Notes under the pieces: model-generated
What the model was told of the DNA's origin: nothing
Seen by the model: the letters and a program-made list of their open reading frames with translations, nothing else
Database searches by the model: none
Source: Rikenellaceae bacterium
GTDB taxonomy: Bacteria; Bacteroidota; Bacteroidia; Bacteroidales; Rikenellaceae
Assembly (NCBI GenBank): GCA_017425655.1
Contig: JAFPAT010000031.1
Location: 1-32,794 of the forward strand
Direction: 5' to 3'
Length of the DNA: 32,794 nt
Shown here: positions 1-17,831 of the stretch, in pieces
How the letters are laid out: each line of letters opens with the position of its first letter
Position numbering within the stretch: the first letter of the stretch is position 1
Position numbers and translations under genes: made by a program

Positions 1-9
1 AATCTATAT

Positions 10-1266
10 ATGCGCAAGGTGTTAATTTCATTCCTGGGAACGGGCCCTAAGGATCGTAATTATAAAACAGCAAATTATCGGTTCAGTTCAGGAAATCAAT
101 ATGAAACGCATTTCGTTGCTGCCGCTATACGTCAAGAATATAAAATCGACAAGATGATTATGATCGGTACAATGCACTCGATGTGGGAGTGCGTGTATGA
201 TCATTATGCCAAACAAAATAATCAGTTCGATGAGAATATCTGTTACGAGATTTACGAACAAGTTGGTGATAAGGCAAATCACCAGACTGAGATTGGCGAA
301 GTCAAACATCAGACTGAAATTGAACGCCAAATGGGTGGCGGGTCGAAGATTGTGACGATTCATTATGGACTGAATGACGAGGAAATCGCTAAAAATTCGG
401 AAACGATATTGGGATTGGAGCAATATTTGGAGCAGAATGATGAACTGATTATCGACATCACGCACGGATTCCGATCGCTGCCGTTGTATATAATGAACTT
501 GATTATATATCTTCAAAATGTAAGTGAAAAGAGACTCAAGATTAAACATATCTGTTATGGCATGCTTGATGTGTCGCAAGAAATGGGCTACACGCCAATT
601 GTTGAGATGACGGATGTTTTAACGGTAAATAAATGGATTGCCGGTGCTTATAGTTTTAAACGTTTTGGCAATGCTGACCAAATCGCAGAGCTGGTGAAAG
701 AGCTTGATAAAGGGTTGAGTAAAAAGTTGGATCAATTCTCGGATGTGAAGAATTTGAATCACTTGGCTGCACTTGAACAACAAAGTAAGCAATTGCGCGA
801 ATTGATTAGACAAGGCAATATGCCACAAATGGCGAAAATGATTATTACGCCTGTCGTTAAAGACTTTTGCAAGCAACTTAATGTGCTTGTAGACTCAATA
901 ACTCCGCATTCAGACTTTCAATATAAATTGGCTTGCTGGCAATATAGCAAGGATAATTATTTAGCCGCATATACTTCGCTTTTTGAGGCAATAGTAACAC
1001 GTTTTTGTGAAGAAGAGCATATCTCTTATGAGCACTGCGATTATGAGATGAGACAAAAAATACAGAATAAATATTTTTACACTAAAGACGAGAAAATTAA
1101 AAGCCAAGTTCGCACTTGGAGCACTTTGTTCCATAAAGTACGCGAGGTGAGAAATGCATTGGCGCATAATGCAGATACTGAACTTACACCAGCTATAATG
1201 ATCCAAAAATTAGGCAGTTTCCTAGATCGATATGGAGAATTGTCAGGTTTAAAGAAAAAGAAATAG
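10..1266 (+). CDS. csx1: Csx1-like CARF-HEPN ribonuclease (type III CRISPR ancillary, TM1812/Csx2 group)
   Basis: This 418-aa protein has the layout of type III CRISPR ancillary RNases. The N-terminal Rossmann-type CARF half opens with ISFLGTG (residues 6-12). The family-diagnostic DITHGFRSLP lies at residues 149-158. The C-terminal HEPN half carries an R-x4-H active site, R381 to H386 in the string RNALAH. In this family, cyclic oligoadenylate made by Cas10 binds the CARF domain and switches on nonspecific RNA cleavage by a HEPN dimer. The ATG at 10 follows an AT-rich stretch cut by the window edge, so an upstream operon partner is possible. The next gene starts 1 nt after the stop, so the two are co-transcribed. 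Cas10, the cyclic nucleotide producer, is not visible and should lie to the left. The family assignment is firm; the exact activator ring size cannot be read from sequence. Confidence 0.88.
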   Translation: MRKVLISFLGTGPKDRNYKTANYRFSSGNQYETHFVAAAIRQEYKIDKMIMIGTMHSMWECVYDHYAKQNNQFDENICYEIYEQVGDKANHQTEIGEVKHQTEIERQMGGGSKIVTIHYGLNDEEIAKNSETILGLEQYLEQNDELIIDITHGFRSLPLYIMNLIIYLQNVSEKRLKIKHICYGMLDVSQEMGYTPIVEMTDVLTVNKWIAGAYSFKRFGNADQIAELVKELDKGLSKKLDQFSDVKNLNHLAALEQQSKQLRELIRQGNMPQMAKMIITPVVKDFCKQLNVLVDSITPHSDFQYKLACWQYSKDNYLAAYTSLFEAIVTRFCEEEHISYEHCDYEMRQKIQNKYFYTKDEKIKSQVRTWSTLFHKVREVRNALAHNADTELTPAIMIQKLGSFLDRYGELSGLKKKK

Positions 1267-1267
1267 A

Positions 1268-1630
1268 ATGTTGATAAACATATCAAATCATCCCAGCGCA
1301 CATTGGGAAAAACGACAAATAGACGAGGCAACCCGACGTTGGGGTGGGGTGGTTGATATGCAGTTTCCGAGTATTGACCCGAAATGGGGTTATGAACGCG
1401 TAGAACAAGAGGCGCAGAAACATATAATGGGCTACCGACGCGAAATCGCTAAATATGATCAACCTTCGGCATTTCATATTATGGGAGAGTTGGTCTATTG
1501 TTTTTGTGTTGTGCAGCTGCTTTTAAAGGGAGGGTATATGGTTGTGGCTTCTACGACCGAACGTGATGTGGTAATGCATAACGGCGAAAAAGTGTCGCGG
1601 TTTAAGTTTGTACAGTTTAGAGAGTATTAG
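1268..1630 (+). CDS. Small CRISPR-associated protein (Csx-type, candidate CARF-related/ring-nuclease-like)
   Basis: A 120-aa soluble protein lies between csx1 (1-nt gap) and cas6 (2-nt gap), so it belongs to the CRISPR operon. It opens with MLINISNHPS and W13, has a conserved-looking FPSIDP segment near residues 34-39, HIMGE near residue 74 and a VVASTTER segment near residue 95. The alternation of hydrophobic strands and helices suits a small Rossmann-like fold. I recall proteins with this N-terminus as small accessory genes of Bacteroidota type III loci, but cannot give a firm family name. By analogy with the small Csx15/Csx16/Csx20-type proteins, it could bind or degrade cyclic oligoadenylate and so damp the Csx1 response. 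That function is inference from size, fold pattern and position. Membership of the CRISPR operon is well supported. Confidence 0.7.
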   Translation: MLINISNHPSAHWEKRQIDEATRRWGGVVDMQFPSIDPKWGYERVEQEAQKHIMGYRREIAKYDQPSAFHIMGELVYCFCVVQLLLKGGYMVVASTTERDVVMHNGEKVSRFKFVQFREY

Positions 1631-1632
1631 CT

Positions 1633-2334
1633 ATGGAAAAAGTATTGAGAATAATGACTATAATCTTCGACTTGCCGCTCGCCCATCGCGAATTGAGTAA
1701 GTTTAGAGGTGCAGTGATCAAGTGTGCAGGTAAAGAGAAAACTTTGTTCCATAACCATATAGAGAACGGTTTCGCTTATCGATATCCAATGATTCAGTAT
1801 CGAATTATTGGGGGTAATGCAGCTTTGGTGTGTATTAATGAGGGTATCGAACAAGCGCAGACACTTTTCGCAAGAGGATTTGTGGGAAGCACAATTGAGA
1901 TAGGTGATGATATGCACGAAGTGAAGATAAATAGCATTAGACAGAATGAAATAGCGCTGCGAATGGTAGATGAAGAACTCAAATATCGAATTGTACGATG
2001 GTTGCCTCTCAATCAACAGAATTATAAAGCGTGGCGAGAGCTAGATAAGGAGCAACGCATTGAGCAGTTGAATAAAATGATGGTTGGTAATATATTATCA
2101 TTTGCTAAGGGCGTTCATTGGCAGCTTTGCGATAGGATAGAATGTAGCATTGACCCTAATTCTATAGAAACAAAGCATGTTCAATATAAAGACCAACAAT
2201 TGATAGCGTTTAATGCGGAATTCTCCACCAATGTCTTCTTGCCGATAGGTATCGGTCTCGGTAAAAGTGTATCTTTGAATAAAGGAATAGTACTACGTCT
2301 TCATAGAGACGAAATTATCAATGAATTCGAATAA
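1633..2334 (+). CDS. cas6: Cas6b-type CRISPR RNA endoribonuclease
   Basis: A 233-aa protein with the two-part Cas6b layout common in Bacteroidota. The N-terminal domain contains LFHNH (residues 38-42) and YRYPMIQY (residues 49-56). The C-terminal domain ends with a glycine-rich loop G206-I-G-L-G-K-S, followed by a basic strand near the C-terminus, the usual Cas6 RNA-binding loop. Cas6 cuts the precursor CRISPR transcript within each repeat to release crRNAs. It is the last gene of the three-gene operon, 2 nt after the small Csx gene. H40 and H42 are possible catalytic histidines, but the residue cannot be fixed by eye. No CRISPR repeat array is seen in the 177 bp that follow, nor anywhere else in the window, so the array it serves must be outside. 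Confidence 0.85.
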   Translation: MEKVLRIMTIIFDLPLAHRELSKFRGAVIKCAGKEKTLFHNHIENGFAYRYPMIQYRIIGGNAALVCINEGIEQAQTLFARGFVGSTIEIGDDMHEVKINSIRQNEIALRMVDEELKYRIVRWLPLNQQNYKAWRELDKEQRIEQLNKMMVGNILSFAKGVHWQLCDRIECSIDPNSIETKHVQYKDQQLIAFNAEFSTNVFLPIGIGLGKSVSLNKGIVLRLHRDEIINEFE

Positions 2335-2454
2335 AATTTGTGTAAGCTATTGCAAATCTCAAAAACGATTTCTAATTTTGTGGAACGAAACCATAAAAAC
2401 GATAACAAGAAACAGATATATTTTTAGACATTATCTCTGACCCCAATCGGGACT

Positions 2455-2505
2455 CCCTGACTGGTTTTTATTCATATTTTAATTTATAAAAACATTAAAA
2501 CAGGG
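2455..2505 (+). other. Two-part hairpin just upstream of a small orphan gene
   Basis: CCCTG (2455-2459) pairs with CAGGG (2501-2505), and GTTTTTAT (2464-2471) pairs perfectly with ATAAAAAC (2486-2493), leaving a 14-nt loop and an asymmetric internal loop. It ends 6 nt before the ATG at 2512, so it would cover the ribosome-binding region of that gene. It is not followed by a T-run, so it is not a terminator. It could be a translational control element or a recombination site; the function is unknown. Confidence 0.5.
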
Positions 2506-2511
2506 ATTGCT

Positions 2512-2850
2512 ATGTTTAAAAATGTAGAGTTGTCGTTACTAAGCGTACGACGTTTTTTTGAGCGAAATAGAATCGCTTACACACTTGGCAAGGGCGTTCT
2601 GCTCTTCAATCGCCAATTCACTAACAACAAGTCGAAGTGCACCTACAACTACGTCGCATTTGTCGATGGCGTTGATTTGGTTGGTCGTCAGCACATCACC
2701 TTCGGGCGCGTGACGATTGATGGCAACGGCACAAAACGTGTCGAGCGAGAACGGGCAAGCCATTGCACCGATATGGCTTTCTTCGCTTTTCACTTTCACG
2801 ACTTGTATCGCGAACTCTATCCACGCAACGAATATCGTAGCGAGCGATAG
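2512..2850 (+). CDS. Small orphan protein, function unknown
   Basis: A 112-aa basic, soluble protein without signal peptide or membrane segment that I do not recognise. Features include RRFFERNR (residues 13-20), a cysteine at 43 and a C-terminal histidine/aromatic cluster HCTDMAFFAFHFHDLY. Third codon positions are rich in C and G (TAC, AAC, TTC, GGC), unlike the AT-rich CRISPR genes before it. A long open frame also exists on the opposite strand (2539-2880), but its start codon would sit in the loop of the terminator at 2863-2904, which is oriented to end plus-strand transcription. This favours the plus-strand gene. It has its own upstream hairpin and its own terminator, so it looks like a single-gene unit, possibly island cargo. 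Confidence 0.5.
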   Translation: MFKNVELSLLSVRRFFERNRIAYTLGKGVLLFNRQFTNNKSKCTYNYVAFVDGVDLVGRQHITFGRVTIDGNGTKRVERERASHCTDMAFFAFHFHDLYRELYPRNEYRSER

Positions 2851-2862
2851 TACACTCTTTTG

Positions 2863-2904
2863 ACTCCGCGTTGTGGGCATAGTCCTACGACGTCGGAGTT
2901 TTTT
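2863..2904 (+). terminator. Rho-independent terminator
   Basis: ACTCCG (2863-2868) continues into CGTTGTGGG and pairs with CCTACGACG (2884-2892, two wobbles), then, after one bulged T, CGGAGT (2894-2899). A run of six T follows. It ends transcription of the small orphan gene 12 nt after its stop codon. Confidence 0.8.
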
Positions 2905-2929
2905 GTAACCTAAAAAATATAAAAATAAT

Positions 2930-3538
2930 ATGAAAAAATTTTTGAAGAAATTGGGTATTACCCTTGTGATTTTATCTGTGATCGTATTTGCAAATGGTTG
3001 TTACTTTGTCTTTGATGGACAGTTCAAAGCTGCCGAAAAGATTAAAAACAAACAGGAACTGAATCTTTACGAGATATCGAGTATATACACAATGCATATG
3101 GCGATATGTACCATAGGCTGGATTTATAGTCCCGAAGCTACAAAAGAGATAATCGCGATGTCTTTTAAGAAGAATCGTGATATCGAAAAGTATGTTGAAA
3201 ACGACTTCTTTTTGGAGAGCCCCAAAGTGCGCCAAGCGGCGCAAAATTTGACTCCGGGAGTAGAGAAGCGAGTAGCATTCACAGATAGTTGCTACTCTCT
3301 GTTTGATCCCAACCACACTGTTGCACTGGCTGTTAATCCCGGGTTCTTGAAGATCGAGGGCAATCGACTGACATTTAGAGCCCCTATTGACTACCCGACA
3401 TATAGCCTCACAAAGATATATGTAACCAAAACGAAGTATATTTTGATCCACGAATCCTTGTTTGACTACCTGGAAAGGGTGGGTGTATTGCATCCATATA
3501 CAATCGTATATTACACCGACTATCCGCTTAAAAAGTAA
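2930..3538 (+). CDS. Membrane-anchored orphan protein
   Basis: A 202-aa protein with a positively charged start (MKKFLKKLG) and one hydrophobic segment at about residues 9-23 ending in FANGC. This could be a signal anchor or a noncanonical lipoprotein signal with Cys24; the -3 and -2 residues (A, N) fit the usual lipobox poorly. The rest is a mixed alpha/beta extracytoplasmic domain with two cysteines only (C60 and one near residue 120). No family is recognised. It starts 26 nt after the terminator of the preceding gene without a clear promoter, and ends 59 nt before the TPR lipoprotein gene, so it may be the first gene of that unit. Confidence 0.65.
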   Translation: MKKFLKKLGITLVILSVIVFANGCYFVFDGQFKAAEKIKNKQELNLYEISSIYTMHMAICTIGWIYSPEATKEIIAMSFKKNRDIEKYVENDFFLESPKVRQAAQNLTPGVEKRVAFTDSCYSLFDPNHTVALAVNPGFLKIEGNRLTFRAPIDYPTYSLTKIYVTKTKYILIHESLFDYLERVGVLHPYTIVYYTDYPLKK

Positions 3539-3597
3539 GTTAGCTGCTAAAAAGTCCCTAAACATTAATTAGATCTTGAATAATAATCAATACTACT

Positions 3598-4638
3598 ATG
3601 AAAAACATTTTCACCCTTTTGGCGATGATGATTATCGCCGTATTGTTTACTAATTGTCGATCGACTGCTCCTGAGTCGGATCAACTGTTACTTGAGGCTG
3701 ATTCGTTGCTCTGTTGCGAGAATCCTGAGGATCGAGCCAAGGGACGTGAAATGCTCCGCAAGTTGGAACGCGACTACCCTCGTTACAGCGATTTGCTGGT
3801 ATTCCTCGGCAACTATGCGCTCGACGATGAACAGTATGACGTGGCTGTTGATTATTTTACGCGCGCTATCAAATGCTATGGCAAAGCGAGTAAATTCGAT
3901 CACTATTATCTTTACGGAATCCGTGCTTTTGCTTATCGTGATATGGGCAATTATGAAGCGGCTGTGTGTGATCTCAACAAATCCTATGAACTTGCACTCG
4001 ATGATGAGCCCGAAGCTGCAATAAGAGCAATTCTTTATCGTGCTGACGTGCGTTATAAGCAACAAATGTATGATGAATCGAATGCTGATTGCGAGTGGAT
4101 CTTGTCGCAAGATTCTCTGAATTATGAGGCTATAATTTGCATTGCGCGCAATCATAATGCGCAAGGGCTCTATTCAGAAGCAATCGAGCTGGTAAATAAG
4201 AGCGAGCAGATCAACCCTGACTATTATGCTATTTCCAAAATACGTATGCAGAGCTATCTCGGTTTGGGCGAAAATCACAAAGCAATTGATGACGCTGTGC
4301 GATTCATTGATGTAAATGATTTCAATGATTTGAGTGCTACGGATTCAATTATGATGGCCGATTTTGCCTATGCGCATCAGTGCGTAGATGCGAAGATCAA
4401 GACAGATGATCGTGCCGAAATTTGGCAATATTTCAAGGCTAATCTCTATTCGTTAGCGGGCGAGTATGACAAGTGCCTGGCCTATATCGAGACATTGGAG
4501 CAGAAGTACGGAACCACATTTGAGATTATAATTTGTCGTGCAGCTTGTTATAAGCTTATGGGCGACATCGAAAAGGAGCAGGCAGAGTTGGCAAAAGCGT
4601 TCGAGAACTATCCGTTGGATGATATAAATGAGGAGTAA
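3598..4638 (+). CDS. TPR-repeat lipoprotein
   Basis: A 346-aa protein with a lipoprotein signal: a hydrophobic stretch at residues 4-18 and a lipobox-like LFTNC with Cys20 as the likely acylated residue. The remainder is a chain of tetratricopeptide-like helix pairs, clearest around residues 62-180: a YALDDEQYDVAVDYFTRAI unit, an AYRDMGNYEAAVCDLNKS unit, then two or three degenerate units to about residue 330. TPR superhelices bind partner proteins, so this is probably a scaffold on the periplasmic or outer-membrane face. Its stop codon overlaps the next start (TAATG), so the next gene is translated in tandem. Function beyond binding is not deducible. Confidence 0.75.
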   Translation: MKNIFTLLAMMIIAVLFTNCRSTAPESDQLLLEADSLLCCENPEDRAKGREMLRKLERDYPRYSDLLVFLGNYALDDEQYDVAVDYFTRAIKCYGKASKFDHYYLYGIRAFAYRDMGNYEAAVCDLNKSYELALDDEPEAAIRAILYRADVRYKQQMYDESNADCEWILSQDSLNYEAIICIARNHNAQGLYSEAIELVNKSEQINPDYYAISKIRMQSYLGLGENHKAIDDAVRFIDVNDFNDLSATDSIMMADFAYAHQCVDAKIKTDDRAEIWQYFKANLYSLAGEYDKCLAYIETLEQKYGTTFEIIICRAACYKLMGDIEKEQAELAKAFENYPLDDINEE

Positions 4639-6023
4639 TGGGCAAATCACAAAACACAGACCCACAGTGCATTGAGTCATCTAAACCAAAAACCGAAAAT
4701 GAAAGTGGGCTAAATAACAGATCGGTCTATTGGGTATTTGCGTCAGCTGCAATCATTACTTTTACATCTTTTTTTGGACTGATTGCAGAGTGGGAAACAA
4801 CTCCGACAGGACTTTGGGGATTCTTAATCTTCGTTGCGGTGCTATTGATTGGTGCCGCAGTTGTTACCTACTATCAGATCAAAAACAGAGCTTACACCCT
4901 TACTCCGCTCAATCAAGAAATGATTTGGAGGATTCTTTGCGAGGAAGGTTTTGAACCTCAATCTAACAACGATCATATTGATATTAGTATCGCGTTAGAA
5001 GTAGGTCAGTATAATATCTCTATTGGTTATCACTATCCTCGCCTCAATATGTGGTATGGGTTTACACATAGAGATATGGATTTATCTGCGGCACAGATGA
5101 TCGCAGATAAAATCACCAACGAATTGATAATGATACAAGCTGATGTGAAGCCCTCTAACGATAACCAAGATGTGAACGTATGCTTCTACATAGCGGCATT
5201 GTGCCATTATGAGGCAGAATTTAGAGATGCATTGAGAGATTATATTCATCTTTTAGCGATCGCGATAATAATGTATGCCGATGAGGTTTCGCCAATGGGG
5301 GAATCCGACGCCAAGATTAAACGACAGCATATATATTATTCCATATACCGTTTGCTACCAAATCTTTTTAGTTGTGTGAGCAAGGGTAAAATCCGGATAG
5401 AGGCTCTAACAGATGAGGCTTGGATTCGATTAATGATAAATGCAAAATTAAAGGAGATCTATATTGCAAACCAGGCGAGTGATTGGGACTCATTCAAAAT
5501 CAATCGAGTGGAGAACTTTGGCGGGTATAAACTCATAGTCTATCAGTTCCCTGATCCAAAGTTCGTACCTGAAGCGAAATATGGTGTGGTGATGCTGAAT
5601 ACAACCACACTCACCATCGACTACTACACTATGGAGCTTTCGTTTGACGGACAATGGGCATATTGTAGCTGTACAACCGAACGACATTACAACTATGGCT
5701 CGTTCGATAGTGGAGAGTTAGACGATTTCCTCAAATGGGTGCTGGAAGATAAGGAGCAGTTGCAGTGCTCTACAGATTGGAAAACAGGTGAGATCAAGCC
5801 CGCAGAACCTGATAGTGGGAAAGACAAGGATGCTGAGCCGCAAGCCCAGCCAAATTATGACATAGTGGCCGATGGCGAAGATGTCCCTGCTCCCAAACCT
5901 CGCAATGAGTTATTAGAAAAAATCAAAGAATTTGGTTTCGCTATTAGATTCATCGTTGTGCTTGCTGCGTTAGTTCTTATTTATTTTGTCTTATTAGGGT
6001 TAACCGTATATGGAAATAAGTGA
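4638..6023 (+). CDS. Three-TM membrane protein of unknown function
   Basis: A 461-aa protein starting at the TAATG overlap with the TPR gene; AGGAG directly before the start is an unusually good ribosome site here. Two membrane segments lie near the N-terminus (about residues 28-50 and 57-77) and one at the C-terminus (about 436-457), enclosing a soluble domain of about 350 residues. The first part of that domain (about 90-220) reads like the alpha/beta YbjN or type III chaperone-like fold, only a weak visual resemblance. A Pro/Glu/Asp-rich linker (about 383-420) precedes the last TM. The 3' end overlaps the HD-domain gene by 14 nt, so the membrane protein and the HD enzyme are translationally linked. 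I cannot assign a function. Confidence 0.7.
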   Translation: MGKSQNTDPQCIESSKPKTENESGLNNRSVYWVFASAAIITFTSFFGLIAEWETTPTGLWGFLIFVAVLLIGAAVVTYYQIKNRAYTLTPLNQEMIWRILCEEGFEPQSNNDHIDISIALEVGQYNISIGYHYPRLNMWYGFTHRDMDLSAAQMIADKITNELIMIQADVKPSNDNQDVNVCFYIAALCHYEAEFRDALRDYIHLLAIAIIMYADEVSPMGESDAKIKRQHIYYSIYRLLPNLFSCVSKGKIRIEALTDEAWIRLMINAKLKEIYIANQASDWDSFKINRVENFGGYKLIVYQFPDPKFVPEAKYGVVMLNTTTLTIDYYTMELSFDGQWAYCSCTTERHYNYGSFDSGELDDFLKWVLEDKEQLQCSTDWKTGEIKPAEPDSGKDKDAEPQAQPNYDIVADGEDVPAPKPRNELLEKIKEFGFAIRFIVVLAALVLIYFVLLGLTVYGNK

Positions 6024-6615
6024 CAAGATCAGCTCGGATATATACCAATCACTTGCTTACATCGGAGCCGATCCGTCAGATTTTGCCCTTGCCAACTCGA
6101 TGTTTTCGCGCCCAAAGCATTCGCCGATGCACGGCATTGGGCATATCTTTCGCACGATGATTGGTTGTGCCTTGCTTGGTGAGTTGCTCCAAAAGCCGAG
6201 AGAGGGGTTACTTGCTTTTTGTGGCGCCTATATTCACGACCTCGGACGAGTGCACGATGGACGCGATCCGCAGCACGGTACAAATGCGGCAAATAGACAC
6301 TTCTCGAAGTTTAACCACTTGTGGGATAAGTACCAACTGACCGATAAGGAACGAATTTATGTTCGATGGGCCGTGGAGCAACATTGTTGTCGCCAATGGA
6401 TACAACGTGGCGAGGAGGGTTATGATGTAATGGCGATATTGAAGGACGCGGACGCGCTGGATCGCTGCCGCTTTCGAACAAACAACCTACGCCCCGAGTG
6501 GCTGCTATATCGAGAGAGTAAGCTGTTGATCCCAATCCTCGAAAGCATTTGCCGAAGAACGAATACGGTCAATGAAGACATGTCGCTTTCTAACTTTATC
6601 AAACTGTTAGACTAA
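6010..6615 (+). CDS. HD-domain phosphohydrolase family protein
   Basis: A 201-aa cytoplasmic protein with the metal-binding pattern of the HD superfamily: H45 (in GIGHIFR), H76-D77 (in YIHDLGR), H125 (in EQHCC) and D148 (in KDADALDR). H82, D83 and H89 are further possible ligands. HD enzymes hydrolyse phosphate esters, including nucleotides and cyclic nucleotides; the substrate here is unknown. The ATG at 6010 lies inside the end of the upstream membrane-protein gene (14-nt overlap), so expression is coupled. It is the last gene before a strong terminator and before the tRNA-Lys attachment site, so it is inferred to be island cargo. Cas10 HD domains and standalone HD enzymes are structurally related, but no CRISPR role can be claimed. 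Confidence 0.8.
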   Translation: MEISDKISSDIYQSLAYIGADPSDFALANSMFSRPKHSPMHGIGHIFRTMIGCALLGELLQKPREGLLAFCGAYIHDLGRVHDGRDPQHGTNAANRHFSKFNHLWDKYQLTDKERIYVRWAVEQHCCRQWIQRGEEGYDVMAILKDADALDRCRFRTNNLRPEWLLYRESKLLIPILESICRRTNTVNEDMSLSNFIKLLD

Positions 6616-6633
6616 GACCATCATCAACTTCAC

Positions 6634-6666
6634 AGCCCATTGTTTTTGAAAACGGTGGGCTTTTTA
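6634..6666 (+). terminator. Rho-independent terminator after the HD gene
   Basis: A 13-bp stem (6634-6646 with 6649-6661, two G-T wobbles, outer arm AGCCCA/TGGGCT) is followed by a T-rich tail. It closes the TPR / membrane protein / HD unit. Confidence 0.85.
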
Positions 6667-6707
6667 TTGATTGTTTAACCCGCAAATTTGCTATAAAGTG
6701 TGCTGCC

Positions 6708-6729
6708 CACGATATTGTCCACAATCGTG
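6708..6729. other. Imperfect palindrome near the attachment site
   Basis: CACGA (6708-6712) and TTGT (6715-6718) mirror ACAA (6721-6724) and TCGTG (6725-6729) around a central CC, with a TA bulge. It lies about 75-95 bp from the tRNA-Lys junction inside the putative island. It could be a recombinase or excisionase arm site or an operator. It has no T-run and no adjacent gene. Confidence 0.35.
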
Positions 6730-6804
6730 ATTTGATTTAAGGAGTAGAAGATAATGATCTGGTACTCAATAGGGTAGATAAGCACGAAAATGCGTTTTAA
6801 TTCC

Positions 6805-6846
6805 CTTTTAATGTTGGGGCCCCGGGTTCGAGCCCCGGCCGGATCA
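6805..6846 (+). other. 3' half of tRNA-Lys(UUU): probable island attachment site
   Basis: The sequence reads as a perfect tRNA from the anticodon loop onward: loop CTTTTAA (6805-6811, anticodon TTT), 3' anticodon stem TGTTG, a 5-nt variable region, T-stem CCGGG (6822-6826), T-loop TTCGAGC, CCCGG (6834-6838), acceptor strand CCGGATC (6839-6845) and discriminator A6846. Nothing upstream pairs with the anticodon stem (AATTC instead of the needed CAACA) and no GATCCGG acceptor 5' strand is present. So this is a half gene with the break at the anticodon loop, where many tyrosine integrases cross over. Given the orientation, the integrated element lies to the left, and an intact tRNA-Lys with the integrase is expected beyond the left edge. 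Confidence 0.85.
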
Positions 6847-6895: not shown

Positions 6896-6968
6896 TATGG
6901 CCTTTCTTAAAATCTGTTTTTGGGCTTAAATCTCGAGGACTTTTAGGTGTTTCTGGTGTGATTTACCC

Positions 6969-7098
6969 TTGAATTTGAGCCTTCTTATTGAGGCTTTAGA
7001 AGGTGCAGTGAACTCTTTGGGCGGTGAGAATAATATTGTTGTGAGCGCGACTGAAAACGAAAACGACGCTATAGAGTCAGATATCATCGACTATCACC
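6969..7098 (+). pseudogene. Possible gene fragment running into a tRNA-Asp repeat
   Basis: From TTG at 6969 an open frame of about 43 codons has protein-like composition (helical LLIEALEGAVNSLGG, then an acidic tail). It then runs straight into the duplicated tRNA-Asp 3' end at 7098, where it becomes nonsense. There is no ATG start and no ribosome site. It could be the tail of a gene cut by the rearrangements here, or a chance frame. The 80 bp before it (6896-6968) show nothing recognisable. Confidence 0.25.
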
Positions 7099-7300: not shown

Positions 7301-7303
7301 CTG

Positions 7304-7377
7304 CGGTATGGACGAGACTCGAACTCGCGACCCCCTGCGTGACAGGCAGGTATTCTAACCAACTGAACTACCACACC
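7304..7377 (-). tRNA. tRNA-Asp(GUC)
   Basis: A complete 74-nt cloverleaf on the minus strand. Acceptor arms GGTGTGG and CCATACC pair with one wobble, the anticodon stem CCTGC/GCAGG encloses loop CTGTCAC with anticodon GTC, and the T-arm has GAGTTCGAGTCTC. The discriminator is G (7304) and CCA is not encoded. Its 3' end is duplicated at 7098-7165. Confidence 0.95.
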
Positions 7378-7519: not shown

Positions 7520-8017
7520 ATGAAAAGTTATATCGATATTTGGAAACATAGTTTCGATTTTCGCGGCTCGTTGACATGCCGCCCGTTCTGGACTTACGTG
7601 TGCATTACGCTATGGCTCTATATCGTCGTTGCAGCAATTGATGTCTTCGTGCTTAATGAAGTTATGCCCTTCCCATTCCTGCTGACTGCAATATTCTCAG
7701 CTCTCAATTTTATTACGGGATTATCTGCAATGGTGCGCCGTCTGCACGATACATCGCGGAGCGGTTGGTGGTTGCTGGTACTATTGGTCCCTATTGTTGG
7801 CCAGATACTTATGATTACTTACCTCGTGCAACGTACTACAGCCGAGGAGGAGTATGAGAATCGTGGTTTCGGAACGATGGAGGTTGATGAAGAGTTTGAT
7901 CCCGAAGAGGTCTATGGAAAGGATTTCTGGGATGTTGAAGAGGAGGAAGTTGCCGAAGGGGAGAGTGAAGGCGATGCATTGAGTGTCGAAAATCACATCC
8001 CGGGCAAGATCTTCTAA
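7520..8017 (+). CDS. DUF805 family inner-membrane protein
   Basis: A 165-aa protein with an N-terminal FRGSLTCRPFW segment, about three membrane helices (roughly residues 22-40, 47-66 and 82-100) and the family signature VRRLHDTSRSGWW (residues 74-86). A long acidic tail (about residues 108-155, rich in Glu/Asp) follows the membrane domain and is longer than in many DUF805 proteins. The frame is open upstream to 7421, but the ATG at 7520 lies just after a good promoter and begins the family homology. The function of DUF805 is unknown. It is a single-gene unit between the tRNA-Asp promoter and a bidirectional terminator. Confidence 0.85.
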   Translation: MKSYIDIWKHSFDFRGSLTCRPFWTYVCITLWLYIVVAAIDVFVLNEVMPFPFLLTAIFSALNFITGLSAMVRRLHDTSRSGWWLLVLLVPIVGQILMITYLVQRTTAEEEYENRGFGTMEVDEEFDPEEVYGKDFWDVEEEEVAEGESEGDALSVENHIPGKIF

Positions 8018-8039
8018 ACGGTTAAACCATATATGATTT

Positions 8040-8077
8040 CGAGGGCTTGAATTTTATGATTTGAGCCCTCGTTTTTT
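8040..8077. terminator. Shared convergent terminator
   Basis: CGAGGGCT (8040-8047) pairs with AGCCCTCG (8064-8071), followed by TTTTTT on the plus strand. The right arm lies inside the last codons of the minus-strand FUSC-like gene, so the hairpin mainly serves the DUF805 gene. Confidence 0.75.
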
Positions 8078-8593
8078 ATTGTGGTAGTTCTGAATCTGTT
8101 CAACAATCCATAGCTCTCCTATACCGATAAAGACTCCAACCGTACCCTCGACAAAGCGTAGAACTCCATTTTTCAGCGGCGGCAGATCAGGAATCTCCTG
8201 CGAGATGACAGAGATGATGATAAGCGTCATCGCGGCGACGGTACCGCCATCTGGGACCTTCAGCATCATACATATAGCCTCTAAAATACAGAATGAAATT
8301 GCTAATCCGTGAAGCGAAAACGGAAATATTTGCAGATATGAGGTGGCTATAACTGCGCCGATAAGTGTGCCGAGTACGCGCAGCCATCCTTTATGGATTG
8401 ATTCTCGCACGTTTTCGGACTGTATAACGACGATTGTCGATGTACAAGCGAGCATGGCTCCCATATAACTCGATGCGTGGAAACGGCCCGTAATATGTGC
8501 GCCAACGGCGTATGCAATCACAATCGCTATGCAATGAAGTGCGATTTGTGATATTGATATGCGTTTTAATACTTTGTGTAATGAATTGCCCAT
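8054..8593 (-). CDS. FUSC / aromatic acid exporter-like membrane protein
   Basis: A 179-aa integral membrane protein with five or six hydrophobic segments and the motif RVLGTLIGAVIATS, which, with the preceding NVRESIHKGW, is typical of the N-terminal membrane half of FUSC and ArAE-type exporters. Only the membrane half is present; the large cytoplasmic domain of full-length efflux members is missing, as in the short family members. The frame is open to a GTG at 8650, but the ATG at 8593 (MGNSLHKVLKR) is preferred because the extra 19 residues are not hydrophobic and the family usually begins shortly before the first helix. It follows the carboxypeptidase-regulatory-like gene on the same strand and is probably co-transcribed. 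The substrate is unknown. Confidence 0.75.
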   Translation of the reverse strand: MGNSLHKVLKRISISQIALHCIAIVIAYAVGAHITGRFHASSYMGAMLACTSTIVVIQSENVRESIHKGWLRVLGTLIGAVIATSYLQIFPFSLHGLAISFCILEAICMMLKVPDGGTVAAMTLIIISVISQEIPDLPPLKNGVLRFVEGTVGVFIGIGELWIVEQIQNYHNKKRGLKS

Positions 8594-8687
8594 TGCAACC
8601 GAAGTTCTGTGTATGACACTTTTTCGGTCAGCGAGCTGCAATAAGCGCACCGAAACGGCTTTTAGATCGTCTTAAAACGGAATATCG

Positions 8688-9683
8688 TTAGCGTTTTTTC
8701 TCGGTCGGAGTGATCTCGATTTGATCAAGCAACAGATCCAGATCGGCATACTTCGTCTTATAGTCGTATGTCAGACGAGTGGGGCATAACGCCGGAATTT
8801 TACTCTTCTTTGTCGGCAGAAATGCACAAAGATCAGCATCGATCTGTTTGAGAATAGAGGTGTTACGATCATATATAATGGTTGAAACAGCCGTTACGCT
8901 TTTTGTTGCGACATCGACTGTGGCAATGATCTGTGTCGCTTTCGAAGCCAACATCGGGAATGAGATTCGGTAGTATTGTGTTTGACCGTCAGTGCTCTGT
9001 CCGAGGAGAGCGTAGTCGGGGCGATATTTGTAAAAATGGCGATTATGTCCGATTGCTGCAACTGCAAAATTCAACTCCGAAAGAGCGTAGTGGAGCGATT
9101 CGTCAAGTTTGTGAAATGTACTTTGTGCGCTATCTTCGGTTGCGTTGCGTTGAATGGGCAGGTGAAACCACCCCTCGGAACGGAAATACGCGAGCTCCTT
9201 GCTATCGACAAGATTTTCAGCCTCGATAGTTCCCTCGGAGTGAAATTTCATATAATCGAAATCGAAATGAGCCTTCATTTTGCAATTGAAATCCATTGCA
9301 GTCGATTCGCCAGCACACTCTTCAAACATTGCACGTGCCTGATCCGATGTGCGATCCACATTCGTATCAGCAATAATACCATCATTAATTTTTAGAACAT
9401 ATTCAATCTCACCACTTTGCATCGCCTCGGTCCCTACCTCTTGTTCGAAGGTCTGGTAGCCGACTGCGTGGGCTGCGAGCTTATATTCGGGGCGAATACG
9501 GCGGAAATCGATATTGACCACGCCGTCAATATCGGTAACAGCGCGAGGTACGCCTTCAATCGTGATAATTGCATACGAAATAGGCATTCGCATCTCATTT
9601 ACGACACGAATATTGAAATCCTGCCCGACAGCGTTAAATGCAATGGCAAGCGTAAATATGAGTAGTGTGGCAATTCGTTTCAT
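8688..9683 (-). CDS. Secreted carboxypeptidase-regulatory-like domain protein
   Basis: A 331-aa exported protein. The signal peptide (residues 1-20) ends in AVGQ. A CarboxypepD_reg-like beta-sandwich follows (about residues 23-95, with ISYAIITIEG and AVTDIDGVVNI), the domain that also opens SusC-type receptors. The C-terminal half (about 120-325) is an alpha/beta region of unknown fold; together this resembles the DUF/CarboxypepD_reg proteins of the Bacteroidota envelope. No protease active site is present. The start has a TATCTTTG element about 25 nt upstream. The FUSC-like gene follows on the same strand. Confidence 0.75.
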   Translation of the reverse strand: MKRIATLLIFTLAIAFNAVGQDFNIRVVNEMRMPISYAIITIEGVPRAVTDIDGVVNIDFRRIRPEYKLAAHAVGYQTFEQEVGTEAMQSGEIEYVLKINDGIIADTNVDRTSDQARAMFEECAGESTAMDFNCKMKAHFDFDYMKFHSEGTIEAENLVDSKELAYFRSEGWFHLPIQRNATEDSAQSTFHKLDESLHYALSELNFAVAAIGHNRHFYKYRPDYALLGQSTDGQTQYYRISFPMLASKATQIIATVDVATKSVTAVSTIIYDRNTSILKQIDADLCAFLPTKKSKIPALCPTRLTYDYKTKYADLDLLLDQIEITPTEKKR

Positions 9684-9708
9684 TAGCGAGTATTGTTTTG
9701 TTATATTA

Positions 9709-9716
9709 CAAAGATA
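9709..9716 (-). promoter_or_regulatory. Promoter -7 element of the CarboxypepD_reg-like gene
   Basis: The plus strand reads CAAAGATA, which is TATCTTTG on the minus strand. No good -33 TTG is seen at the expected distance. Confidence 0.5.
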
Positions 9717-9723
9717 GATAATT

Positions 9724-9766
9724 ATAAATAAAAATGGATGCCTCCCAGCGGAAAGACATCCATTTT
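9724..9766 (-). terminator. Terminator of the nspC-manA operon
   Basis: AAAATGGATG (9731-9740) pairs with CATCCATTTT (9757-9766). On the minus strand the T-rich tail follows toward lower coordinates. It begins 22 nt after the manA stop. Confidence 0.8.
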
Positions 9767-9787
9767 GTCGGTACTATACAATCTCTA

Positions 9788-10762
9788 TTACTCGATATAG
9801 ACCTCCAATATGCGGCCCTTGCCTGTGATTGTAACTTCGTTTATCTCGGCTGGAATGAGCACTAATTCGCCTGCTGCGATCTTTTCAGAACCACCATCGG
9901 TCGAGATTGTGAATTCACCTTCGGCTGCAATATAGACCGTGAAAGTGTCAAATTTTGCGAGGTCGCAAACATATTCACCATTAATAGCTATAAGATTGGT
10001 AATGAAATGATCACGCCTGATTAACTCAACCGAAGAATTAACTTCGGGAGATTTAGTCAGCACGTACTCCTCTTCGCTCTCAAAATCGATAGCATCGATC
10101 GCCAATGCGGTGTGCAATTCACGTGGACGGCCTTCCGAATCAACACGATCCCAATCATAGACACGATATGTAATATCGGATGCCTGCTGAATCTCGATTA
10201 ACTCGATTCCTTTGCCGATAGTGTGGATTGTTCCAGAAGGGATATAATATACGTCGCCGCGCTTAACCTCATAGCGATTAAGCAATTCGGGAAGGCGATT
10301 GGTTACAACGGCATCAATAAACTCCTCACGCGAAACGGGACGTTTGAAGCCGATATATAACTCGGCCCCTTCACTGCAATTGGTGATGTACCACATTTCG
10401 CTTTTGCCATATGAGTTATGACGCTCGGCAGCCAATTCGTCGTCAGGATGTACCTGAATCGATAACGTGTCTTGAGCGTCTAATGTTTTGAACAGCAGAG
10501 GAAAGACAACGCCAAAACGCTCGAAAATCTTCTCGCCGACCAAATCACCCATATAGACTTCGATCAACTCCTCGATGTTGTTACCCTTGAGCATTCCGTT
10601 GGTAACCACCGAGAGGTCGCCACGAATGCCCGATAAATCCCAGCTTTCTCCATATTGGCGGCTACGGTCAATACGCAACCCTTTGCCTTTTTTGGCAATG
10701 AGCGTAGAACCTCCCCAGATGCGAGGCTTCAAACGAGGGCGGAATTTTAACGGATATAGCAT
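9788..10762 (-). CDS. manA: Mannose-6-phosphate isomerase, class I
   Basis: A 324-aa cupin zinc enzyme that interconverts mannose 6-phosphate and fructose 6-phosphate, feeding GDP-mannose and surface sugar synthesis. The zinc ligands are visible: Q103 and H105 in SIQVHPDD, E122 in GKSEMWY and H180 in PSGTIHTIGKG. The catalytic-region YRVYDWDR (residues 199-206) and RELH follow. Length fits the short bacterial class I form. It is the third gene of the nspC operon, 33 nt after the cysteate-synthase-like gene, and ends at a strong terminator. Confidence 0.93.
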   Translation of the reverse strand: MLYPLKFRPRLKPRIWGGSTLIAKKGKGLRIDRSRQYGESWDLSGIRGDLSVVTNGMLKGNNIEELIEVYMGDLVGEKIFERFGVVFPLLFKTLDAQDTLSIQVHPDDELAAERHNSYGKSEMWYITNCSEGAELYIGFKRPVSREEFIDAVVTNRLPELLNRYEVKRGDVYYIPSGTIHTIGKGIELIEIQQASDITYRVYDWDRVDSEGRPRELHTALAIDAIDFESEEEYVLTKSPEVNSSVELIRRDHFITNLIAINGEYVCDLAKFDTFTVYIAAEGEFTISTDGGSEKIAAGELVLIPAEINEVTITGKGRILEVYIE

Positions 10763-10795
10763 CGTTAAAAACGTGTGTTAATGTTAAATTAAGTT

Positions 10796-12100
10796 TTACT
10801 TATCTTGTTTGCTAAACATAGCTTCTACTTTCGCAATTACATCTTCCACTTCGGGATTGAGTGAGAAGACGTGTGTAGGCTTCAAGTGCCACAACTCCTT
10901 GCCTTCTTGCGCTTTGCGCTCGCCACCACCGGTGATGTTGAGCATAACGATCTTCTCCTTATCGACCTTGCCGTCGGCAACAGCCTTGATAAGTGAAGCC
11001 GTTGCAACTGCAGCTGCCGAATAGATGTCGCAACCCTCTGTCTGTTCAAACAATTCGGCTGCTCTCTTTGCTGCGGCATTCGTTATTGCAAATATCTCGC
11101 CATCAGTATCTTTCAATGCGTCATACAAGCCGCCGATAATGCCATAAGGAGGTTTGCGATTCGATAGAACTTTGGCGTTTATGATCTCCGCATCACGACG
11201 AGCCTTATTGTCATCGTAAGGCAGCATTTCTCGCGAATCAACTCTCCAAGCGTCAAACATCGGAACGAAAGGAGCATTCTGCGATACCATCAACTTGGCC
11301 TTTGTCGTGCCAAAACGTCCATCTTCGATCAATCGCATGTTTGCTTCCCACGCTGCAATTGCACCCGTACCACTACCAACAGCTTGGAAATAGTAGTCAG
11401 GGATCTGTCCGATTGTGGTTGCTGCTGACAGCATAGTTGTAGCCATACCATCGCGACGGGCGATATTCTTTGCACCACCTTCGGCATAGAATTTCTTCGA
11501 TTTCAGTGCTAAATTGCTCAAATGGATAGCATCGAAATAGTCGCCGCCCTTTTCGCATGAGATCAATTTAACGCAGGGATTCAGCGGCTTCTCAAACCAC
11601 AGAGCCGACAAATTGTCCGAAGGGACACTCAACAACAGCGGAATATTGTTATCAGAGCATACCTTTGCAAATGCACGCGCAGTGTTGCCTGCTGATGCTA
11701 CAACGAGGACTTTGTCGTTAGACGGATCGATACGACCACAAACCGAGTATGCCTCGGTCTCCTTAAACGAACAGGTGGTCATCTTTGCTCCAATAGCGGG
11801 GTTGTAACCGTTAAAGGTGATATATAGATTTTTCAAGCCGAGAGCCTCGGCCAAACCTTTACTTCGATAGGTAACGGGAGCCGAAGAGCCTTCGAGCATA
11901 CGGCTGATCGGTAACCAATCGGCAAACTTGTAGATGCCATAACTGTTATCGCGTACCTCAATTTGCTTCTTTGCGTAGATTGCACGCACCAACGACGGCG
12001 ACTTGCACTCTTTATCGTCAAGCACCCAACCTGTGTCCTCGAATTCACGACCCGTGGCAACACATTGCAGTATATATTGTGTAGGCTTAAATTCTTCCAT
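10796..12100 (-). CDS. PLP-dependent threonine-synthase-fold enzyme, probable cysteate synthase
   Basis: A 434-aa fold type II PLP enzyme. The lysine that binds PLP is K113 in CSFKETEAYSV, the phosphate/cofactor loop is ASAGNT (135-140), and a TGGG motif near the C-terminus completes the site. It differs from the usual Bacteroidota ThrC, which begins with a different domain and has SFKDRG; SFKE-x-EA and the length fit the cysteate synthase branch. Cysteate synthase makes L-cysteate from O-phosphoserine and sulfite. In Alistipes-type bacteria cysteate is the head-group precursor of sulfonolipids (capnine, sulfobacin). The acyltransferase that would follow in that pathway is not adjacent. The substrate is inferred from motif and organism; a threonine synthase paralogue remains possible. 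It lies between nspC and manA in one operon. Confidence 0.65.
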   Translation of the reverse strand: MEEFKPTQYILQCVATGREFEDTGWVLDDKECKSPSLVRAIYAKKQIEVRDNSYGIYKFADWLPISRMLEGSSAPVTYRSKGLAEALGLKNLYITFNGYNPAIGAKMTTCSFKETEAYSVCGRIDPSNDKVLVVASAGNTARAFAKVCSDNNIPLLLSVPSDNLSALWFEKPLNPCVKLISCEKGGDYFDAIHLSNLALKSKKFYAEGGAKNIARRDGMATTMLSAATTIGQIPDYYFQAVGSGTGAIAAWEANMRLIEDGRFGTTKAKLMVSQNAPFVPMFDAWRVDSREMLPYDDNKARRDAEIINAKVLSNRKPPYGIIGGLYDALKDTDGEIFAITNAAAKRAAELFEQTEGCDIYSAAAVATASLIKAVADGKVDKEKIVMLNITGGGERKAQEGKELWHLKPTHVFSLNPEVEDVIAKVEAMFSKQDK

Positions 12101-12154
12101 ATCTTTATATTATGGTTGTTACTTAATCTTTTTGTTTAATTCGATGTTTTACAA

Positions 12155-13285
12155 CTACGACATACGATCACGATAATCCTCATAGCCAAATTTGCGTACT
12201 ACATCGAAACTATCGTCTTCGTGCCAGATGGCGATCGAGGGATGTTCAACTCCATTAAACATTGTTGTCTTGACCATCGTATAGTGGATCATATCCTCGA
12301 ATACAATACGGTCGCCAACCTTCGGGTCAACCTCAAAAGCCCAATCGCCGTAGAAATCGCCAGCCAGACAGCTATTGCCACCCATACGCCATTTTCGTTC
12401 ATTCTCTTCGGGATCGTGAGCACCCATAATTGCGGGCTTATATGGCATCTCCAAACAATCGGGCATATGGCATGCAAACGAGACATCCAACATCGCAGTA
12501 TTAACGCCGCCGCTTTGAATAACATCTTCTACCGTTGATACAAGGTAACCCGTACGCCAAGTAAATGCACTGCCTGGTTCAAGTATCAGACGCAGATGAG
12601 GATGACGCTCGCGGAAGCTATTTAAGACTTCAATCAATTCGTCGCAGTTATAATCTTTATGTGTCATCAGGTGCCCGCCTCCCATATTGAGCCACTTAAT
12701 CTGTGGCAGGAGATGCCCGAAATGTTTTTCAACTGCCTCCAAAGCCAAACGTAGGTGTTCGGGTCGCGACTCGCAAAGTACATGGAAATGCAGACCTTCA
12801 ATGCCTGCGGGCAACTCTTTCATCTCTTCAGCTCGAATACCAAGACGTGATCCTGCAACACAAGGGTTGTAGAGATCTGTCTCAACGGGCGAATATTCGG
12901 GATTGATTCTCAATCCGCACGAAATTCCGCGCAGTAGTGCTTGTGCGCCGAAGCGGGCGAACTGACCGAGCGAGTTGAAAGTGATATGGCTGCTACATTG
13001 CAGAACCTCTGCGAATGAGCGATCGGTATATGTAGGTGCGTATGTGTGAGCCATTTGTCCATACTTCTCCATAACCAGTCGCGCCTCGGCAGCCGACGAT
13101 GCGGTTGCTCCGTCAGAGTGCTGGGCGAGGGTGGGGAAGATGCTCCACATTGCGCACGCTTTCAATGCAACAATAATCTCCGCACCCGTAGCTTTACGGA
13201 CACGGTCAATAATCTCCATATTTTTGGCGAGCAATGTCTCGTCAAGCACAAAACAGGGAGATGGTAATTTTCGGAAATCTATCAT
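12155..13285 (-). CDS. nspC: Carboxynorspermidine decarboxylase
   Basis: A 376-aa PLP-dependent alanine-racemase-fold decarboxylase that converts carboxy(nor)spermidine to (nor)spermidine, the last step of the carboxyspermidine polyamine route used by Bacteroidota. The PLP lysine is K42 in ALKACAMW. Other family marks are HFHVLCE, NMGGGH, LILEPGSA and the substrate-site GNSCLAGD near residue 307, whose cysteine is the conserved decarboxylase cysteine. Length is normal. It is the first gene of an operon with the cysteate-synthase-like gene (54-nt gap) and manA. A clear promoter with an inverted repeat over its -33 box lies upstream. Confidence 0.93.
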   Translation of the reverse strand: MIDFRKLPSPCFVLDETLLAKNMEIIDRVRKATGAEIIVALKACAMWSIFPTLAQHSDGATASSAAEARLVMEKYGQMAHTYAPTYTDRSFAEVLQCSSHITFNSLGQFARFGAQALLRGISCGLRINPEYSPVETDLYNPCVAGSRLGIRAEEMKELPAGIEGLHFHVLCESRPEHLRLALEAVEKHFGHLLPQIKWLNMGGGHLMTHKDYNCDELIEVLNSFRERHPHLRLILEPGSAFTWRTGYLVSTVEDVIQSGGVNTAMLDVSFACHMPDCLEMPYKPAIMGAHDPEENERKWRMGGNSCLAGDFYGDWAFEVDPKVGDRIVFEDMIHYTMVKTTMFNGVEHPSIAIWHEDDSFDVVRKFGYEDYRDRMS

Positions 13286-13313
13286 CTGCCGAATATCTCT
13301 ATAAAATATTATG

Positions 13314-13343
13314 CAAAAATAACAAAATTCGACTATTTCCCAA
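13314..13343 (-). promoter_or_regulatory. Promoter of the nspC operon
   Basis: On the minus strand TTG (plus CAA 13341-13343) and TATTTTTG (plus 13314-13321) are 19 bp apart, with the nspC start codon 28 nt downstream. Confidence 0.65.
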
Positions 13344-13387
13344 CTATTTAAGCTCTAAATAAGTATAAATACTCCGGTAAATAGTTG
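13341..13387. promoter_or_regulatory. Inverted repeat overlapping the nspC -33 box (possible operator)
   Basis: CAACTATTTA (13341-13350) and TAAATAGTTG (13378-13387) form a perfect 10-bp inverted repeat. The space between holds a smaller dyad, AGTAT/ATACT (13362-13373). The left arm includes the -33 TTG. This is the usual geometry of a repressor or activator site. The rest of the 311-bp gap, about 13388-13530, shows no gene. Confidence 0.5.
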
Positions 13388-13528
13388 ATATTAAGTCTAA
13401 CAAGAATGAAAATAGACGTAGATCTATACCTAATGTCGATTTATCTCTGTTTCGAATTGGTTTCAGCGGGAAATTCTAGAAGCCGGCATATGGAAATAAT
13501 ATGCGTTATTTGATGTTTTCGGGTTAAA

Positions 13529-13566
13529 AAGAAAGCGATCGTAATCTAAATCGGATTACGATCGCT
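13529..13566 (-). terminator. Terminator of the rsmD operon
   Basis: A perfect 13-bp stem, AGCGATCGTAATC (13534-13546) with GATTACGATCGCT (13554-13566), has a 7-nt loop. On the minus strand TTTCTTTTT follows. Confidence 0.88.
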
Positions 13567-13596
13567 ATTTGAATGAAGAACTGACGCTTATAACGA

Positions 13597-14708: not shown

Positions 14709-14730
14709 TCTGTTCGCAGTGGGCGAAATA

Positions 14731-15363: not shown

Positions 15364-15435
15364 TTGTTGTTATAATTTATTAAGTTTGTACAAAATTTTT
15401 GACATGTGCTATCAGCTTAAAATTTGATTAAAAGT

Positions 15436-16866: not shown

Positions 16867-16895
16867 TAATATTCGCGAAATAATTGTACTATGTG

Positions 16896-16926
16896 TTGCA
16901 TAGTAATAGGAAAATTTATAGATTTG
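16896..16926 (+). promoter_or_regulatory. Promoter of the DUF2807 gene
   Basis: TTG (16896-16898) and TAGATTTG (16919-16926) are 20 bp apart, 55 nt before the start codon. Confidence 0.65.
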
Positions 16927-16980
16927 CACTATCGAAAAGATTCAAAAGCAGATTTATAAATTAAAGAATAAGCAACACGT

Positions 16981-17769: not shown

Positions 17770-17788
17770 TCATCATAGATTAACGATC

Positions 17789-17831
17789 AAAAAAGCAGGA
17801 TTCTCAATTATCGTGGGAATCCTGCTTTTTT
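17789..17831 (+). terminator. Strong terminator after the DUF2807 gene
   Basis: AAAAAAGCAGGATTC (17789-17803) pairs perfectly over 15 bp with 17817-17831, which ends in a T-run. It could act on both strands. Confidence 0.9.

What the first reader, a model, noticed from the sequence alone, without database searches (positions are those of the whole stretch)
6805..6846. Half tRNA-Lys(UUU) marks the right end of an integrated island
The bases form a perfect tRNA-Lys from the anticodon loop to the discriminator base, followed by the native terminator, but no 5' half exists. The break falls exactly at the anticodon loop. By known tyrosine-integrase behaviour, the element lies on the 5' side, so the CRISPR accessory genes and the TPR/membrane/HD genes are likely its cargo. 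The left flank is visibly AT-richer than the right.
Basis: partly seen in the sequence, partly recalled or inferred. Interest (0 to 1): 0.75.

Follow-up and report, generated by a model that had tools for sequence, protein, structure and literature searches.

The report
Half tRNA-Lys marking a genomic island
The half tRNA gene is the mark left where a DNA island carrying CRISPR genes inserted into a lysine tRNA gene of a gut bacterium; this is a well-known way for islands to insert, here backed by an occupied and an unoccupied copy of the same site in close relatives.

Summary
Window 6805-6846 matches 41 of 42 bases of the 3' part of an intact tRNA-Lys(UUU) on contig C69 of the same draft; C69 stops right at that tRNA's 3' end. 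Two close relatives show the arrangement. In G111, C69 genes, an intact tRNA-Lys and the genes right of the half lie on one contig, with no half copy. In G113 the same flanks enclose 18.5 kb that begins with tRNA-Lys and a tyrosine integrase and ends with a half tRNA like the window's. So the half is attR, and window 1-6804 is the right end of an island. Its cargo: Csx1, Csx20 and Cas6b of a type III CRISPR system, then TPR, unassigned and HD genes. The island's left part, with integrase and CRISPR effector, was not found in the draft. Corrections: about 75 bases just right of the terminator resemble the integrase-side arm of such an element, perhaps a trace of an earlier integration, and a weak 5'-half-like sequence precedes the half. 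A well-documented case of a known mechanism.

The parts
1..6804 (+). right part of the integrated island (the contig begins inside it)
   Evidence: on the element side of attR; none of its 8 ORFs searched matched the fetched stretches of G111, G113 and G098; G+C 0.412 against 0.463
10..1266 (+). Csx1 (CARF-HEPN), type III CRISPR accessory ribonuclease
   Evidence: PADLOC CARF2--CARF_HEPN E=2.7e-112; TIGR02221 above cut-off
1268..1630 (+). Csx20
   Evidence: PADLOC Csx20 E=1.8e-32; NCBIfam Csx20 29.6 bits, below its cut-off of 70
1633..2334 (+). Cas6b, crRNA processing
   Evidence: Pfam Cas6b_C and Cas6b_N above cut-off
2512..2850 (+). 112 aa ORF, no family found
2930..3538 (+). 202 aa ORF, no family above a cut-off
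   Evidence: none; one NCBIfam match far below its cut-off
3598..4638 (+). TPR protein
   Evidence: Pfam TPR families above cut-off
4638..6023 (+).
   Evidence: no Pfam, NCBIfam, PADLOC or PHROG match
6010..6615 (+). HD-domain protein
   Evidence: Pfam HD E=2.6e-5, above cut-off; 2 of 101 genus genomes, own included
6739..6804 (+). right arm of the element next to the crossover
   Evidence: 66 of 66 identical in G098, related in G113; among the listed matches of a search of 180 genomes only these two and the own genome extend into it
6805..6846 (+). displaced 3' part of tRNA-Lys(UUU), attR
   Evidence: 41 of 42 identical to intact tRNA-Lys at G000:C69
6853..6888 (+). terminator-like hairpin following the tRNA
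   Evidence: self-complementary 36 bases; same hairpin after intact tRNA-Lys in G001, G014, G111 and G113
6903..6976 (+). possible remnant of the integrase-side arm of an earlier element
   Evidence: aligns to the arm between tRNA-Lys and integrase of G113, score 45; best of 842 control segments 29
7303..7377 (-). tRNA-Asp, near the start of the conserved right flank
   Evidence: ARAGORN; same order in G111, G113, G098
7520..32794 (.). chromosomal flank (DUF805, FUSC, PMI, PALP, decarboxylase, MutS, GyrB and others)
   Evidence: collinear as far as fetched: 12 of 12 window ORFs in G111, 16 of 16 in G113, 14 of 15 in G098; Pfam

Best explanation
An element with a tyrosine integrase integrated by crossover in the anticodon loop of tRNA-Lys(UUU). 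The element's attP carried a copy of the 3' part of the gene, so the tRNA was rebuilt on the left (contig C69), and the host's own 3' part was pushed to the right end, where it lies at 6805-6846 as attR. The element lies to the left and carries Csx1, Csx20 and Cas6b of a type III CRISPR system (the effector operon may lie beyond the contig start) plus TPR, unassigned and HD genes. The site may have been used more than once: bases 6903-6976, right of attR, look like the integrase-side arm of another such element. Shown: half and intact tRNA, an unoccupied and an occupied site in relatives, an integrase beside the tRNA in a relative. Inferred: the integrase and left end of this island, the order C69 - island - C13, and the earlier occupant.
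For: Intact tRNA-Lys(ttt) at G000:C69:1-74 and half at 6805-6846, 41 of 42 identical, starting at the anticodon loop. G111: 5 of 8 C69 ORFs searched, intact tRNA-Lys, tRNA-Asp and 12 of 12 right-flank ORFs within reach on one contig; its genome shows no half copy (2 matches only). G113: 8 of 8 C69 ORFs, tRNA-Lys, integrase 200 bases downstream (Arm-DNA-bind_5, Phage_int_SAM_5, Phage_integrase), half tRNA 18.5 kb on, then 16 of 16 right-flank ORFs. The element arm 6739-6804 is shared with G098 (66 of 66) and, more loosely, G113. Rare cargo: Cas6b 4 of 180, HD 2 of 101. Lower G+C on the island side in the window and in G113, 0.409 against 0.493 and 0.486. Integrases 3' of tRNA-Lys in further congeners.
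Against: No contig of the draft joins C69 to C13. None of the three integrases found in the draft (C65, C51, C93) lies beside tRNA-Lys; the one on C51 lies beside tRNA-Gly. No RAMP protein was found in the draft, so the CRISPR effector is missing too. The window's cargo was seen in no other tRNA-Lys island; in the three congeners with Cas6b the Csx1-Csx20-Cas6b block lies on fetched 19-20 kb stretches without a tRNA gene. G111 is not a clean empty site: a surE-rplS block of about 1.5 kb lies between tRNA-Lys and the shared right flank, and this block was beside tRNA-Lys in no other fetched locus.
Confidence: 0.93

Rival explanations
1. The half tRNA is an old pseudogene or a rearrangement breakpoint: tRNA-Lys was broken by a chromosomal rearrangement and the genes to its left are core genes that moved, with no mobile element involved.
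For: Gene order around tRNA-Lys does vary in the genus: in several congeners saccharopine dehydrogenase lies next to relatives of the window's 12155-13285 and 10796-12100 genes, and a surE-rplS block differs in place between G111, G113 and the own genome.
Against: Both flanks lie in order on one contig in G111 and in G113. The break falls exactly at the anticodon loop, G113 has the same half with a related arm at the end of an integrase-bearing insert, and the two left genes tested are rare in the genus.
Confidence: 0.04
2. An extension of the best explanation, not exclusive of it: the site has held several elements. What lies right of 6846 is the remainder of a second element of the same kind, so the site saw serial or tandem integration.
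For: 6903-6976 resembles the arm between tRNA-Lys and integrase in G113 (score 45, best of 842 controls 29). In G113 itself the sequences from the two tRNA 3' copies onward agree at 181 of 201 aligned bases, well past the terminator. Of 49 tRNA-Lys sites scored for the arm, only G113's own scored 302; the next was 26. A tandem of an IME and a slightly decayed ICE in tRNA-Lys is described in Streptococcus agalactiae (PMC5704250, passages seen).
Against: No ORF of 90 aa or more that looks like an element gene lies between 6846 and tRNA-Asp at 7303, and the draft shows no further half tRNA-Lys. The arm is absent after the half in G098 (score 14) and in G111. It could instead be host flank once captured by the element.
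Confidence: 0.45

Closest known systems
Genomic islands in tRNA genes as mapped by Islander (anticodon-centred class)
   Same: Intact tRNA gene plus displaced 3' fragment, integrase beside the intact gene (seen in G113), crossover at the anticodon loop. PMC4383910 (abstract and passages seen) counts 2083 anticodon-centred among 3919 islands and 3760 with a 3' fragment.
   Different: In the window's own draft the two ends are on different contigs and no integrase of this island was found, so Islander's integrase filter could not be passed.
Integrative mobilizable elements such as IME_Sag2603_tRNAlys, NBU1, NBU2
   Same: Integration in the 3' end of a tRNA gene (tRNA-Lys, tRNA-Leu, tRNA-Ser), with a tandem of IME and decayed ICE at tRNA-Lys in S. 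agalactiae (PMC5704250, passages seen).
   Different: No relaxase was recognised in the window's island part or in the 10 G113 island proteins scanned with Pfam; mode of transfer unknown.
Type III CRISPR-Cas loci of congeners
   Same: Csx1, Csx20 and Cas6b in the same order as in G113:C2, G068 and G034; in G113:C2 the neighbours are Cas10, Csm2, Csm3, Csm4, Csm5 by PADLOC, i.e. type III-A.
   Different: In the window the block is cut off from any effector by the contig start and sits at the end of a tRNA-Lys island, which was not seen in those three.

Membership tests
Genomic island in a tRNA gene (Islander definition) | intact tRNA gene with a displaced 3' fragment of the same gene | tested here: met
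   G000:C69:1-74 intact, 6805-6846 fragment, 41 of 42
Genomic island in a tRNA gene (Islander definition) | fragment downstream of the tRNA gene, same orientation, island between | tested here: inconclusive
   the two are on different contigs in the own draft; met in G113, 18.5 kb apart, with the same flanking genes
Genomic island in a tRNA gene (Islander definition) | tyrosine integrase gene within the island | tested here: inconclusive
   not in the part held by the window, and none of the 3 integrases of the draft is beside tRNA-Lys; present in G113
Genomic island in a tRNA gene (Islander definition) | unoccupied site in a relative (supporting test, not part of Islander's filters) | tested here: met
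   G111, both flanks on one contig, no half copy; a surE-rplS block lies between
Complete type III CRISPR-Cas locus | RAMP effector genes | tested here: not met
   no PF03787 match in the own draft, 88% complete; only Csx1, Csx20, Cas6b at the contig edge
Complete type III CRISPR-Cas locus | Cas10 | not tested
   no Cas10 search of the own draft was made; none among the window's left 8 ORFs
Integrative conjugative or mobilizable element | relaxase or conjugation genes | tested here: inconclusive
   none recognised in the 6.8 kb held; left part missing

The most novel reading that the evidence does not exclude
tRNA-Lys(UUU) in this Rikenellaceae genus is a dock where related elements with a shared attachment arm replace one another and bring different CRISPR immune systems: a type III module in the window's strain, Cas9 with a short array and no recognised Cas1 or Cas2 in G113, the latter on a backbone that in the window's own genome sits at tRNA-Gly with another integrase.
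Probability: 0.3. Interest if true: 0.5.

Novelty: new member of a known kind. Interest (0 to 1): 0.35.

Why it matters
One mechanism explains a half tRNA, a broken draft, an occupied site and an unoccupied site. It also places CRISPR genes of two types on elements that use the same tRNA gene in sister species, so one can ask directly how immune systems are exchanged by tRNA-targeting elements in gut Bacteroidales. The half tRNA itself is ordinary.

Tried and rejected
Looked for the island's own integrase: PF00589 gave three places in the draft, C65, C51 (beside tRNA-Gly) and C93 (contig edge), none beside tRNA-Lys. Looked for the CRISPR effector with PF03787: none. PF12987 was not found in the own draft, but it rang in none of the 14 control genomes either, so this says nothing. 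Looked for viral or circular forms carrying the element arm joined to the tRNA half: two exact patterns in viral contigs, no match. Tested whether the sequence before the half is a decayed or interrupted tRNA 5' half: weak, and not kept in G113. G001 was first taken as an empty site and dropped, because a divergent integrase begins about 0.4-0.5 kb downstream of its tRNA-Lys. Direct repeats in window 1-6800 show no CRISPR array. A megablast of the G113 left end against plasmids matched 7 records; the 5 rows listed cover only 67-75 bases of tRNA.

The integrase count is not an unbiased one: 7 of 50 distinct tRNA-Lys sites have an integrase on the 3' side and 0 of 50 on the 5' side, within what was held (0 to 5 kb a side), but 6 of these 7 had already been found and were themselves seeds of the profile; only the one in G005 was new. 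The same script merged G111 and G113 into one site, so G113's own integrase (also a seed) is not among the 7.

Paper searches (listings seen, passages of three papers read) showed no report of this element; that is a limited search of open-licence papers.

Full report
What is there. The window is the whole of contig C13 of a draft genome of 1,658,101 bases in 103 contigs, 88% complete. The MutS protein (17889-20588) is 90-91% identical to those of three Rikenellaceae genomes from the gut of dairy cattle, roe deer and goat. At 6805-6846 stands the 3' part of a tRNA-Lys, from the first base of the anticodon loop to the discriminator base. ARAGORN and Rfam find no complete tRNA there. The intact tRNA-Lys(ttt) of the draft is at C69:1-74, minus strand, and the contig stops right at its 3' end. 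The two sequences agree at 41 of 42 positions, the exception being T to C in the variable loop. The other tRNA-Lys matched is the ctt gene on C100.

Where the flanks belong. Of the 180 genomes of the genus searched with 6805-6900, 169 matched at E up to 0.001, many of them only through tRNA-Lys genes. Three close relatives were used for gene order. In G111, 5 of the 8 C69 ORFs searched, an intact tRNA-Lys, tRNA-Asp and 12 of 12 right-flank ORFs within reach lie in order on one contig; the genome shows no half copy. Between tRNA-Lys and the shared right flank G111 has a surE-rplS block of about 1.5 kb, which lies elsewhere in the own genome and in G113 and was beside tRNA-Lys in no other fetched locus, so the site is unoccupied but not identical. 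In G113, 8 of 8 C69 ORFs and 16 of 16 right-flank ORFs enclose an insert: tRNA-Lys at 13845-13919 of the stretch, an integrase at 14119-15339, and a half tRNA from 32403. The integrase has the Arm-DNA-bind_5, Phage_int_SAM_5 and Phage_integrase domains. In G098 contig C17 ends inside tRNA-Lys and contig C65 starts 66 bases before a half tRNA, the same broken picture as in the window's genome.

The element side. The 66 bases before the half, 6739-6804, are identical in G098 and recognisably related in G113. In a search of 180 genomes with 6735-6846, only the own genome, G098 and G113 among the listed matches extend into this arm; the list is cut off at its weak end. This is what the right arm of one element family would look like. 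The island side has lower G+C: 0.412 against 0.463 in the window, 0.409 against 0.493 and 0.486 in G113. The genes are Csx1, Csx20 and Cas6b, then two unassigned ORFs, a TPR protein, a 461 aa protein without family, and an HD protein. None of these 8 matched the fetched stretches of G111, G113 and G098. Cas6b has relatives in 4 of 180 genomes and the HD gene in 2 of 101, own included in both. In the three other genomes with Cas6b the block Csx1-Csx20-Cas6b has the same order. In G113:C2 the neighbours are Cas10, Csm2, Csm3, Csm4 and Csm5 by PADLOC; in the other two the neighbours were only judged from ORF starts. So the missing left part of the window's island may hold a Csm operon; the draft has no RAMP match.

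How it most likely works. A tyrosine integrase recombines the element's attP, which carries a copy of the tRNA 3' part, with the anticodon loop of the gene. The gene is rebuilt at the integrase end and the host's own 3' part is displaced to the other end. This is the textbook arrangement; the Islander paper counts 2083 anticodon-centred islands of 3919 (PMC4383910, passages seen). Integrases also lie just 3' of tRNA-Lys in other congeners: 7 of 50 distinct sites and none on the 5' side, a biased sample in which 6 of the 7 were known beforehand and seeded the profile.

A correction and an addition. The hairpin does follow intact tRNA-Lys in G111, G001 and G014. But beyond it window 6903-6976 aligns with the arm between tRNA-Lys and integrase of G113, score 45 against at most 29 in 842 control segments. 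Of 49 tRNA-Lys sites scored for that arm, G113's own scored 302 and the next 26; G098 after its half scored 14. In G113 the sequences from the half and from the intact copy onward agree at 181 of 201 aligned bases. One reading is that an earlier element of the same kind sat here and was lost apart from this arm; capture of host flank by the element is not excluded. A tandem of an IME and a slightly decayed ICE in tRNA-Lys is described in S. agalactiae (PMC5704250, passages seen).

Against this reading. No contig joins C69 to C13, the own integrase was not found, and no other tRNA-Lys island was seen with the same cargo. Contig C51 of the draft carries at tRNA-Gly an element of which four backbone proteins (one of them cut by the contig end) are 86-100% identical to those of G113's tRNA-Lys element, while the integrases are 50% identical. 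Two elements with one backbone in one genome could be why the assembly broke; this was not tested.

Verdict. What interest there is lies in the exchange of CRISPR systems at one tRNA gene, not in the half tRNA.

Noticed in passing
L170:2296-6416 (G113 island): The G113 tRNA-Lys island carries Cas9 followed by four copies of a repeat at 76-77 base spacing. No Cas1 or Cas2 was recognised among the 15 of 15 island ORFs that were scanned with PADLOC; one ORF (L170:10415-11014) matched the candidate defence model PDC-M72A.
   Followed up: partly
L216 (G000:C51): An element at tRNA-Gly in the own genome shares its backbone with G113's tRNA-Lys element (four proteins 86-100% identical, one cut by the contig end), but the integrases are only 50% identical: same backbone, different tRNA target.
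   Followed up: partly
window 7087-7400: Repeated sequence with a fragment like the tRNA-Asp 3' end; 96% copy at G000:C37:6976-7289 and 93% part copy at G000:C16:12316-12442; window 7087-7165 and 7251-7329 are 85% alike.
   Followed up: no
window 6756-6804: The element arm resembles a degraded tRNA 5' half with a paired acceptor stem (Rfam tRNA 23.4 bits, cut-off 29); 11 of 1854 control segments score as well and G113's arm shows no tRNA-family match.
   Followed up: yes
L172:16354-17823 (G111): A surE-rplS block lies next to tRNA-Lys in G111 but elsewhere in the own genome (C85) and G113 (C9), with the tRNA-Asp-type repeat beside it in G113.
   Followed up: partly
window 10796-13285 and L005:296-1486: In L044, L051, L052, L056 and L179, L180 saccharopine dehydrogenase, beside tRNA-Lys, lies next to relatives of the window's decarboxylase and PALP genes; in G111 and G113 they are on opposite sides of tRNA-Lys.
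   Followed up: no
L214:9006-10163 (G070): A 58-59% relative of the HD protein lies in G070 within a longer ORF (385 aa); no tRNA and no match to the tRNA-adjacent integrases in the fetched stretch.
   Followed up: no
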